From assembly GCF_964204645.1 (NCBI RefSeq), contig NC_134026.1:1364001-1428000 (forward strand): 64,000 bases of DNA. The letters are read 5' to 3'. Position 1 is the stretch's first letter. Every line of letters starts with the position of its first letter. The stretch comes from Tubulanus polymorphus. Lineage: Eukaryota > Nemertea > Palaeonemertea > Tubulaniformes > Tubulanidae. The position numbers were made by a program, and so were the translations under genes. The notes under the pieces were generated by a model that was not told the DNA's origin, did no database searches, and worked only from the letters and a program-made list of their open reading frames with translations. Positions 47,001 to 50,000 of this stretch are shown here, in pieces.

Positions 47001-50000
47001 TGAGCAATCAATTTTTGGTGTAAAACTAATATTTGTAATACGCTAAGGACAAAATGGATATGTATCAAAAAGACACGTATTTTTGTGATCGACTTAAATC
47101 TTCAAAGGAGTCATAGGATTTATCCTAACTTTTTGTAACTTCTAATCTCGGGTATCATGGCACATGCTCAACACCCAAAGCAGAGATTTAGTAAAAAATA
47201 TATATTATATATACCATGTTTCCCTGAACGATATAAATAAGAGAATTATGATAGCTAAATACAAACTGCAAAAGTACATCATTGGCTTTTAGCATATTTT
47301 TCAATACTTGAAATTTGAGAGACACAAAAATGAAAACTTAAGACCTGAACATTTCATTTTTCATACAGCTGAGAAAGACTAAGGCCATTACCGATATGTA
47401 GTGGAGGTATAGAAAGATATCAACAAAGATCCTGGTAGACAACAAATTACATAACTGCCTTTTGTCTATCATATCAAATGACATCAATGATTTCAATAAT
47501 ATCGATGTCTACAGCATCAAAATATTTGTTTATATCTTATATCAAGTTTCTTGTTTTTTTTTCAAATAAAAATCGAAGTCATTTCGAAAATTGCACAATT
47601 GCAATGACGGAAAATATTGCTCACCGTAAAATGCATTTGAAATGTAAAAGAAAGCATGAAAATTTTACAATCTGTTCTTGAATGGAACAAGTAGTTATAT
47701 ATGTGAAAATTATGCGTTTATATTAGTGACTCAGCAGGAACACATTAGAATCCACGTTAGTTATATCACAGGGTTTATGAATTTTAAGACTTATTGATGG
47801 TACCTATTTCATATGAACAGCTGATGGTAATAAAATACAGCAATTCAGGGAAAAATATCATAAAAATAAATAAATGACCGAGATGATGTTTTAGAAAAAA
47901 ACATGCACATATAATTGGACGTAGAAAATAAAACTATAATCTTTGTACCGAAGTGTTGATGAGAGAGTTTGAATAAATTGATTATAGATTTTGAAAAATA
48001 ATTCATTTGAGAAAGTTTTTTAAACCAATACATGCATCAGTGTATATCACCAGCAGGTAAAGTAAATATTCTTTGTTTTTATTCAAGTTTTTATGATTTG
48101 ATGGAAATCAAGTTTGATGAAATTTTCAAGCAATATAACCGTATGTACCTTCTTCGGTTTCATCATCATCATCATCATCATCTGTATATACACACACAGA
48201 CACACATGAAACATTGTTATTTAATTGTCATATTTATCTCTTCGATAGTGAAAGTGAGTAATTTTGTGAGCATTGTGCACTTTTCATCTCTGTGTGTTAG
48301 TTTTTTATTTAATGTGTTTTTCAATTCAAATGTGATTCACTCATATTTAACGATACCTTTACTATATTCATTATCTCTCTCTAAATATGAAATTTATATC
48401 GTAACATGAAATACAAAGATTTTCTAATGTTTTAAGTTTAGAAGATATTTCGTGGTCAAATCTGCGCGTAAATATCGCATGTCAAAAGCAAAATCTAAAT
48501 TCTAATCTAAAATCTACAGAACGATTCTTTTTTGGACGAGTTAGGAAAAAAAAGAAAATTCACCCCCATCGCCTTGTGCGGAAATCTGTGAGATAGCGAT
48601 ATACGCTGTTCCGATAGGATCATCTTCCGTCATTCGGTCCCTGGTAGCAGCAGAAAAAAAAGATGAATCAACACGAGATTAGTCATGCATAATAATGAAG
48701 ATATTAAGAAGTTATGTCGAAGAACAATTGCTGAAACAATCATAGAAATATCATTCTTATAAATAGCAGTAATTCAGATGATTTTTTTAATTGAGCCGCA
48801 TGAAAATTGAATACTGGAATCAGTTTAAAAGATGCAGCGTTGAAAACCATGCAGTACAGTATCAGAAGCGGTATGTATATATCAATAAAGAGAATCATAA
48901 CAAGTGGGTACATGCGAAATTCAGTTGCAGAAAATGTGTAAAATTTTTCATATGAAGTAATAACATGATATACAATACAACAGAAGTTGATCAGTAAATG
49001 TATGTACATGTACATGTGATTACATGAAGACAACATATACATTACAATGTATATCTGTTGATTATTTCTAATTATTTCCAAATAAGCACATTCATCATGC
49101 TCGTCATTCAGAAGAGGAAATTTGAAATTCAACTATGAAAAAAAAAACAACAACATTGCATTCATAACTTCTATCTGTGTTATACTCATGTGACTGCAAC
49201 AAAATCAGTTAAATATTCATACAAGAGGGTTACAAGGTTGAACAACATTGTGTTCTGATTGTTAATCTAATTAGTAATCTCACAGAGATAATAGAAAGTC
49301 TTTTCTGATATCTCCGTGTAACGGGTCGTATTCTATGTGAAAGGACATATCCAGTAGTAAAACTTCAAATAGCTGCTTTGTTGAGCTATAACGTCAGATT
49401 TTAACGGTTGGTTGAATAGGAGTATCAGATGCAAAATACGGACACCTGTTACAAACCAGCACACCGATCAATAACGCGAAAAACAGTTATTTCAGCACTT
49501 TAAGGACGTGCATTATGGATAATTTCTGTCTGGTATGCTGCAAAATTCACTGTACTAGTAACTGGATATGCCCTGATCTTTCTAACTATACGAGTAACCA
49601 TCACCAACCATAATCCCCTTGAGCCGATAAGTTTCGGATATCTACAATAGCAGTTGCCATGGTGTCATCTCCAGTTAAACGGTCCCTACATGCACATAGA
49701 CGAGAATAAAAAATTTACAAAGATATATCAGAATGATACAGTTGAGATGGTAAAAAATACCGAGGATCCACTAGGGCTACCTTAACCGATGGACCTGGTT
49801 TCAAATAAGGATTTGATGAAATATGAGTAAAATTTGGATAGGATTTCGTTTTAAATAGCCGATGCAATATATTCACATTTTTCATCAAACCACCAGTTAA
49901 AAAGCAGAAATACATAGTAATATAGAAGATTTTCTTCAAACACGTATAGAAGATGATATATAAAAGATTATTTAAGAGATTTAAAACTGTATTCTGTTAA

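What the first reader, a model, noticed from the sequence alone, without database searches (positions are those of the whole stretch)
48564..49685. Mutually exclusive 77-nt exon pair at a C2C calcium loop
Two exons of identical length and phase encode alternative versions ([13 protein letters not shown] and [13 protein letters not shown]) of the same loop-3 segment. Use of both or neither breaks the frame. The swap falls on calcium-binding residues, so isoforms may differ in calcium or lipid affinity.
Basis: partly seen in the sequence, partly recalled or inferred. Interest (0 to 1): 0.75.

Follow-up and report, generated by a model that had tools for sequence, protein, structure and literature searches.

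The report
Alternative exon pair in ferlin C2C
An animal gene for a ferlin, a calcium-dependent membrane-fusion protein, carries two interchangeable-looking copies of one short exon, which would let the animal swap the tip of a membrane-gripping loop while keeping that loop's calcium-binding residues the same.

Summary
A minus-strand ferlin gene (C2C closest to myoferlin and dysferlin) has two adjacent 77-nt exons of the same phase, 49609-49685 (5' copy) and 48564-48640 (3' copy). They are identical at 48/77 bases and 14/26 residues. None of 76 other open AG-77nt-GT segments resembles them. Using neither puts a stop at the junction; using both puts one three codons into the second copy. Differences favour third codon positions (8, 6, 15), and a long-neutral relic would rarely look like this.

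Mapped by hand on myoferlin (PMC12264198), the calcium-coordinating residues in the swap (D446, T449, D452) are the same in both copies. What changes is the membrane-touching tip (L448 is L or M; K450 is G or E) and the following strand. I expect a shift in lipid grip, not gain or loss of calcium sites.

Each copy has an RBFOX-type TGCATG within 50 nt upstream of its acceptor; 0 of 28 other exons have one within 100 nt. That lead was noticed first and tested afterwards.

No RNA evidence was available. Mutually exclusive C2 exons are known in invertebrate Syt1, Syt34 and Esyt2 (PMC2823689), so this is a new member of a known kind.

The parts
50196..50239 (-). Constant exon just upstream ([14 protein letters not shown] + TG of W); supplies the first loop-3 Asp
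49609..49685 (-). 5' alternative exon, 77 nt, [25 protein letters not shown]; donor GTTGGT
48564..48640 (-). 3' alternative exon, 77 nt, [25 protein letters not shown]; donor GTGAAT; closer to human MYOF/DYSF
48149..48181 (-). Constant exon just downstream, seven Asp then ETEE (GAT repeat); skipping both copies gives TGA at this junction
49689..49694 (-). TGCATG (RBFOX-type motif) at -9 to -4 of the 5' copy's acceptor
48684..48689 (-). TGCATG at -49 to -44 of the 3' copy's acceptor, next to a branch-point-like ACTAAT
48848..48853 (-). Third TGCATG, in the intron between the copies
50338..50406 (-). Constant C2C exon ([23 protein letters not shown])
50478..50581 (-). Constant C2C exon with loop 1 and its two Asp (MDSD..., LVDPYV)
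50661..50743 (-). Constant exon, end of FerI and start of C2C ([27 protein letters not shown])
50853..50896 (-). Constant exon, FerI part ([15 protein letters not shown]); FerI below its Pfam cut-off on this partial stretch
46355..46455 (-). Next conserved exon ([33 protein letters not shown]); holds the loop-4 stretch
30060..30207 (-). Exon with the ferlin C-terminal transmembrane segment
   Evidence: (Ferlin_C, 1.7e-25)

Best explanation
It is an old tandem exon duplication inside a ferlin gene, used as a mutually exclusive pair. The spliceosome joins the exon at 50196-50239 to one copy and then to 48149-48181. Transcripts with both or neither carry an early stop and should be destroyed by nonsense-mediated decay (general knowledge, not shown here). 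Each isoform keeps the C2C calcium ligands but has a different loop-3 tip (Leu-Thr-Gly or Met-Thr-Glu) and a different following beta-strand. C2C should therefore grip anionic membrane with different strength, shifting the calcium level at which the ferlin engages membrane in different cells. Shown: the pair, its phase, the stop codons, the conserved ligand residues, and a pattern of coding constraint. Inferred: use of both copies in RNA, decay of wrong products, tissue choice, and the lipid effect. A possible regulator is an RBFOX protein acting on TGCATG near each acceptor.
For: Identical length, phase and order; 48/77 nt and 14/26 aa identity. Similarity far above the 76 other exon-like segments. 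Codon-position differences 8, 6, 15; pN 0.29 against pS 0.65; a relic neutral from the start was open and this similar in 38 of 20,000 simulations. Flanking introns share only 9-13 nt matches (E 0.19-0.67), so the duplication looks old. Both wrong outcomes give immediate stops. Both copies pass Pfam C2 in context (56.1 and 52.6 bits, cut-off 22). Ligand positions from PMC12264198, mapped by hand on the alignment. TGCATG upstream of both copies against 0 of 28 other exons within 100 nt; both positions hit in 1 of 4000 and 4 of 2000 intron shuffles. A likely RBFOX RRM exon exists in the genome (76% identity over 41 residues).
Against: No RNA evidence. The 5' copy has a weak donor and a weak acceptor (1 and 2 of 27 others score lower), and the ab initio chain chose neither copy. 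A copy that lost use recently is not excluded: with the last 5 of 29 changes neutral, 14% of simulations look like the real pair, against 34% with none. The RBFOX lead was noticed first and tested after; the two upstream stretches share 6 hexamers where other exon pairs share 5.0 on average, and another hexamer, TCTCGT, is equally absent from the other 28. TGCATG is not enriched in the window as a whole (36 against 41.5 expected). Antisense TGCATG also clusters, 4 in 3 kb. No other animal genomes were available to show conservation.
Confidence: 0.72

Rival explanations
1. The 5' copy is a relic: a duplicated exon that recently lost use, still open by luck; only the 3' copy is spliced in.
For: Weak donor GTTGGT and weak acceptor at the 5' copy. 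The 3' copy is nearer to human MYOF and DYSF (12 and 12 of 24 identical against 9 and 11). 5 or 10 neutral changes at the end would still give this picture in 14% or 6% of simulations.
Against: Open frame, intact AG/GT and exact 77 nt kept at high synonymous divergence; third-position bias. Decay from the start fits 38 of 20,000 simulations. The 3' copy's donor is almost as weak.
Confidence: 0.13
2. Both exons are regulated, but mainly as an off switch: regulators (for example RBFOX) block both acceptors, the double skip makes TGA at the junction and the mRNA is destroyed.
For: Immediate stop on double skipping; TGCATG near both acceptors; both donors weak.
Against: Does not explain why two diverged, constrained copies are kept; the motif evidence is after the fact.
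Confidence: 0.07
3. Exclusivity is enforced by competing intron RNA structures (docking and selector sites).
For: The best pairing between the introns on either side of the 3' copy is -28.7 kcal/mol, reached by 0 of 20 shuffles and 5 of 160.
Against: Three intron pairs were tested, so 5 of 160 is weak; with the real TG-rich intron kept, 9 of 100 reach it. The other two intron pairs are ordinary (8 of 20 and 15 of 20).
Confidence: 0.05

Closest known systems
Mutually exclusive exons altering C2 domains in invertebrate Syt1, Syt34 and Esyt2 (PMC2823689, passages seen)
   Same: Alternative exons replace part of a C2 domain, in invertebrates, arising several times.
   Different: Those are synaptotagmins and extended synaptotagmins; this is a ferlin C2C. 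I did not see which strands or loops they swap.
Human otoferlin exon 47/48 alternative transmembrane domains (PMC10394277, passages seen)
   Same: Alternative coding choice within a ferlin gene, tissue-linked.
   Different: Terminal exons changing the transmembrane domain, not a C2 loop; not an internal frame-locked pair.
egl-15 exons 5A/5B in C. elegans and FGFR2 exons 8/9 (PMC3585155, PMC2880598, passages seen)
   Same: Mutually exclusive pair with UGCAUG in the intron upstream of one exon, bound by RBFOX proteins that repress its acceptor.
   Different: Experimentally shown there; here only the motif is seen, and before both copies.
Myoferlin C2C (PMC12264198, passages seen)
   Same: Same loop 3 with D-W-D-R-(L/M)-T-x-(N/D)-D.
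   Different: No alternative loop-3 exon is described in the passages I saw.

Membership tests
Mutually exclusive exon pair from tandem duplication | Adjacent homologous exons of equal length and phase | tested here: met
Mutually exclusive exon pair from tandem duplication | Double use or double skip gives a broken frame | tested here: met
Mutually exclusive exon pair from tandem duplication | Each copy joined to both neighbours in RNA, never stably together | not testable with these tools
   no transcript data held
Mutually exclusive exon pair from tandem duplication | Both copies under coding constraint | tested here: met
   one pairwise comparison only, recent loss of one copy not excluded
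Mutually exclusive exon pair from tandem duplication | Conserved in related species | not testable with these tools
   no animal genome besides G000 was held
Ferlin | C-terminal transmembrane segment of ferlin type | tested here: met
   Ferlin_C 90.2 bits, cut-off 29.4
Ferlin | C2B-FerI-C2C order (PMC2923515, passage seen) | tested here: inconclusive
   C2C over cut-off; FerI 22.9 and 24.2 bits against 28 on the partial stretch given; C2B exons were not sent; the C2A-like exons matched no Pfam family
Type 1 ferlin (dysferlin/myoferlin side) | C2C nearer to MYOF/DYSF than OTOF | tested here: met
   166.6 and 161.8 against 100.4 bits
Type 1 ferlin (dysferlin/myoferlin side) | FerA and DysF present | tested here: inconclusive
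   FerA 28.4 bits against cut-off 33.9; DysF not matched on the exons given, though 41388-41552 looks like it by eye
Calcium-binding C2 domain | Five acidic ligands | tested here: met
   two in loop 1 and one in loop 3 are constant, two in each copy; positions by hand and PMC12264198
Docking/selector RNA-structure exclusivity | Strong inter-intron pairing | tested here: inconclusive
   0 of 20 and 5 of 160 shuffles reach the best pairing; 9 of 100 with the real TG-rich intron; two other intron pairs ordinary
U2/U12 incompatible splice sites | U12-type donor at one copy | tested here: not met
   donors GTAAGG, GTTGGT, GTGAAT; U12 consensus recalled

The most novel reading that the evidence does not exclude
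A ferlin whose loop-3 membrane tip is exchanged by RBFOX-controlled splicing while the calcium ligands stay fixed: a natural experiment that separates calcium binding from lipid grip in C2C and sets the membrane-repair or fusion threshold by cell type.
Probability: 0.25. Interest if true: 0.6.

Novelty: new member of a known kind. Interest (0 to 1): 0.42.

Why it matters
Ferlins act in calcium-dependent membrane fusion and repair, and C2C is a major calcium- and PS-dependent membrane contact in the myoferlin structure (PMC12264198, passages seen). Two natural versions of its loop-3 tip with unchanged ligands would show which part of the loop sets membrane affinity, and that ferlins, like synaptotagmins, can be tuned by exon choice. 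I saw no such pair in a ferlin in the listings, judged by title and abstract start. These cover open-licence PMC papers only; 'ferlin' there matches at the start of a word, and 'myoferlin' or 'otoferlin' with mutually exclusive exons was not searched. Absence from print is therefore not shown.

Tried and rejected
Intron base-pairing as the exclusivity device: weak at best (0 of 20, 5 of 160 and 9 of 100 shuffles for the best intron pair; 8 of 20 and 15 of 20 for the others). A third copy or other duplicated exons in this gene: none by segment scan. tblastn of 29 other exon peptides gave only weak hits (best E 0.004, on the other strand and with a stop), none of which I judged to be a neighbouring duplicate; hits with E above 0.5 were not printed. 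U12-type splice sites: none. Alternative donors for the 5' copy: the GTs at +81 and +87 score -2.64 and 0.86 against -0.41 for the 77-nt donor, but both lead to stops. Pair in the paralogs: in the two other ferlins (L007, L008) loop 3 lies by eye inside one longer open stretch and no copy was seen; no dedicated search was made there. The C5 hit (L009) looks by eye like another C2 protein. Species: the COX1 search gave nothing, so the animal is not named. The Fox-1_C Pfam search was uninformative, its controls being silent too. Nine splicing motifs (patterns recalled) were counted after TGCATG was noticed: TGCATG and a NOVA-like motif lie upstream of both copies, but the NOVA one does so in 395 of 2000 shuffles; GTGTG is also frequent (59 of 2000), from the TG repeat. 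The sense TGCATG cluster in the gene is modest (31 and 38 of 1000 shuffles).

Limits. The 27-28 comparison exons came mostly from my own exon finder, which rewards strong splice sites, so an exon from outside it tends to rank low. One comparison exon was entered as 46357-46456; it is 46355-46455, and it still has no TGCATG within 100 nt upstream. No structure prediction was run, because a spliced protein is not letter-for-letter in the DNA, which that tool requires.

Full report
What is there. The minus strand of the window carries a ferlin gene. By my rough exon chain it runs from about 59.7 kb (an exon that looks C2A-like by eye; no Pfam match) to about 30.06 kb (transmembrane exon; Ferlin_C 1.7e-25). 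Its C2C is closest among solved structures to myoferlin (166.6 bits) and dysferlin (161.8), then otoferlin (100.4). Within C2C, between the constant exons 50196-50239 and 48149-48181, lie two 77-nt exons in tandem: 49609-49685 and 48564-48640. The introns are 510, 968 and 382 nt.

Is it real? The copies are equal in length and phase and identical at 48 of 77 bases and 14 of 26 residues. They score 64 (BLOSUM62) against each other. Of 30 other sense and 46 antisense open AG-77nt-GT segments of the same phase, none exceeds -4 against the 3' copy or 2 against the 5' copy. A genome search with the 3' copy returned only itself (7.9e-10) and the 5' copy (1.28) at E <= 10, with low power for so short a query.

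Are both coding? Differences fall 8, 6 and 15 on codon positions 1, 2, 3 (Fisher p 0.008); pN 0.29, pS 0.65. If the 5' copy had drifted neutrally from the start, with the 3' copy held fixed as a simplification, it would be both open and this similar in 38 of 20,000 simulations. If only the last 5 or 10 of 29 changes were neutral the figures are 14% and 6%, against 34% with none. Long joint constraint is favoured; recent loss of one copy is not excluded. Flanking introns share only 9-13 nt matches, so the duplication looks old. Against: my ab initio chain chose neither copy, though it also missed two real neighbouring exons.

Frame logic. Either copy alone is open. Both together read ...GDYGTE-stop, three codons into the second copy. 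Neither reads ...VKD-stop at the junction. Both errors leave many exons downstream, so decay is expected from general knowledge; it was not tested.

What the swap changes. In lipid-bound myoferlin, C2C loop 1 coordinates calcium through D374 and D396; loop 3 through D444, W445 (carbonyl), D446, T449 and D452; and the tip residues R447, L448 and K450 touch the bilayer (PMC12264198, passages seen). By hand on the alignment, the first three Asp lie in constant exons, W is rebuilt identically at the junction (TG|G), and D446, T449 and D452 are D, T and D in both copies. R447 is R in both. L448 is L (5') or M (3'); K450 is G (5') or E (3'); the VVG after D452 is TMA (5') or PIG (3'). So the ligands are fixed, and tip polarity, charge and the next strand vary.

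Which copy is ancestral-like? The 3' copy is nearer to MYOF and DYSF (12 and 12 of 24 identical; BLOSUM62 78 and 74) than the 5' copy (9 and 11; 55 and 60). Against OTOF, L007 and L008 the counts are 9, 8 and 6 of 23 for the 3' copy and 7, 6 and 6 for the 5' copy (short hand alignments). In the genome's two other ferlins the region lies by eye in one longer open stretch with no second copy seen.

How choice may be made. Both donors are weak (1 of 27 other donors scores below the 5' copy's, 2 of 27 below the 3' copy's); for the acceptors 2 and 13 of 27 score lower. TGCATG, the RBFOX site, lies at -9 to -4 before the 5' copy and -49 to -44 before the 3' copy, there next to ACTAAT. None of 28 other exons has one within 100 nt upstream. 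Both upstream stretches carry it in 1 of 4000 and 4 of 2000 intron shuffles. The sense sites cluster modestly (31 and 38 of 1000), while the window as a whole has no excess (36 against 41.5) and antisense sites reach 4 in 3 kb. UGCAUG before one of two exclusive exons represses that exon in egl-15 and FGFR2 (PMC3585155, PMC2880598, passages seen). The genome has a likely RBFOX RRM exon. This lead was noticed by eye and then tested among nine motifs. Sites before both exons do not by themselves say which copy would win.

Comparison. Craxton's survey says mutually exclusive exons altering C2 domains arose several times in invertebrates, in Syt1, Syt34 and Esyt2 (PMC2823689, passages seen). Human otoferlin has alternative transmembrane exons 47/48 (PMC10394277, passages seen). 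The ferlin phylogeny paper mentions truncated Misfire isoforms and an alternative C2A exon, but no alternative C2C exon, in the seven passages shown (PMC2923515). The human exclusive-exon survey's main text does not name dysferlin, myoferlin or otoferlin, nor MYOF or OTOF; its one 'dysf' match is the word dysfunction (PMC5740500; its supplements were not seen). Searches for ferlin or dysferlin with mutually exclusive exons listed nothing relevant by title (one search listed 20 of 38).

Verdict. A well-supported exon pair, ordinary in kind and not met in the papers I searched; a new member of a known kind. Use of both copies in RNA remains to be shown.

Noticed in passing
L010 (G000:C9:15880215-15880382 and 15881182-15881352): The C9 ferlin paralog has two different transmembrane-domain exons in tandem, each followed by its own stop codon, resembling human OTOF exons 47/48; if homologous, that splice choice would be ancient.
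   Followed up: partly
window 46602-46616, minus strand: A 15-nt AG/GT-bounded micro-exon candidate (adds GKGDE-type residues in frame) between the seven-Asp exon and the FLPCFGP exon, in the linker after C2C.
   Followed up: partly
window 48149-48181, minus strand: The exon after the swapped pair is mostly a perfect GAT repeat giving seven Asp, possibly length-variable.
   Followed up: no
window 6299-17824, minus strand: A single 3842-codon open frame with internal repeats, by eye part of a large apolipophorin/vitellogenin-type lipid transfer protein gene.
   Followed up: no
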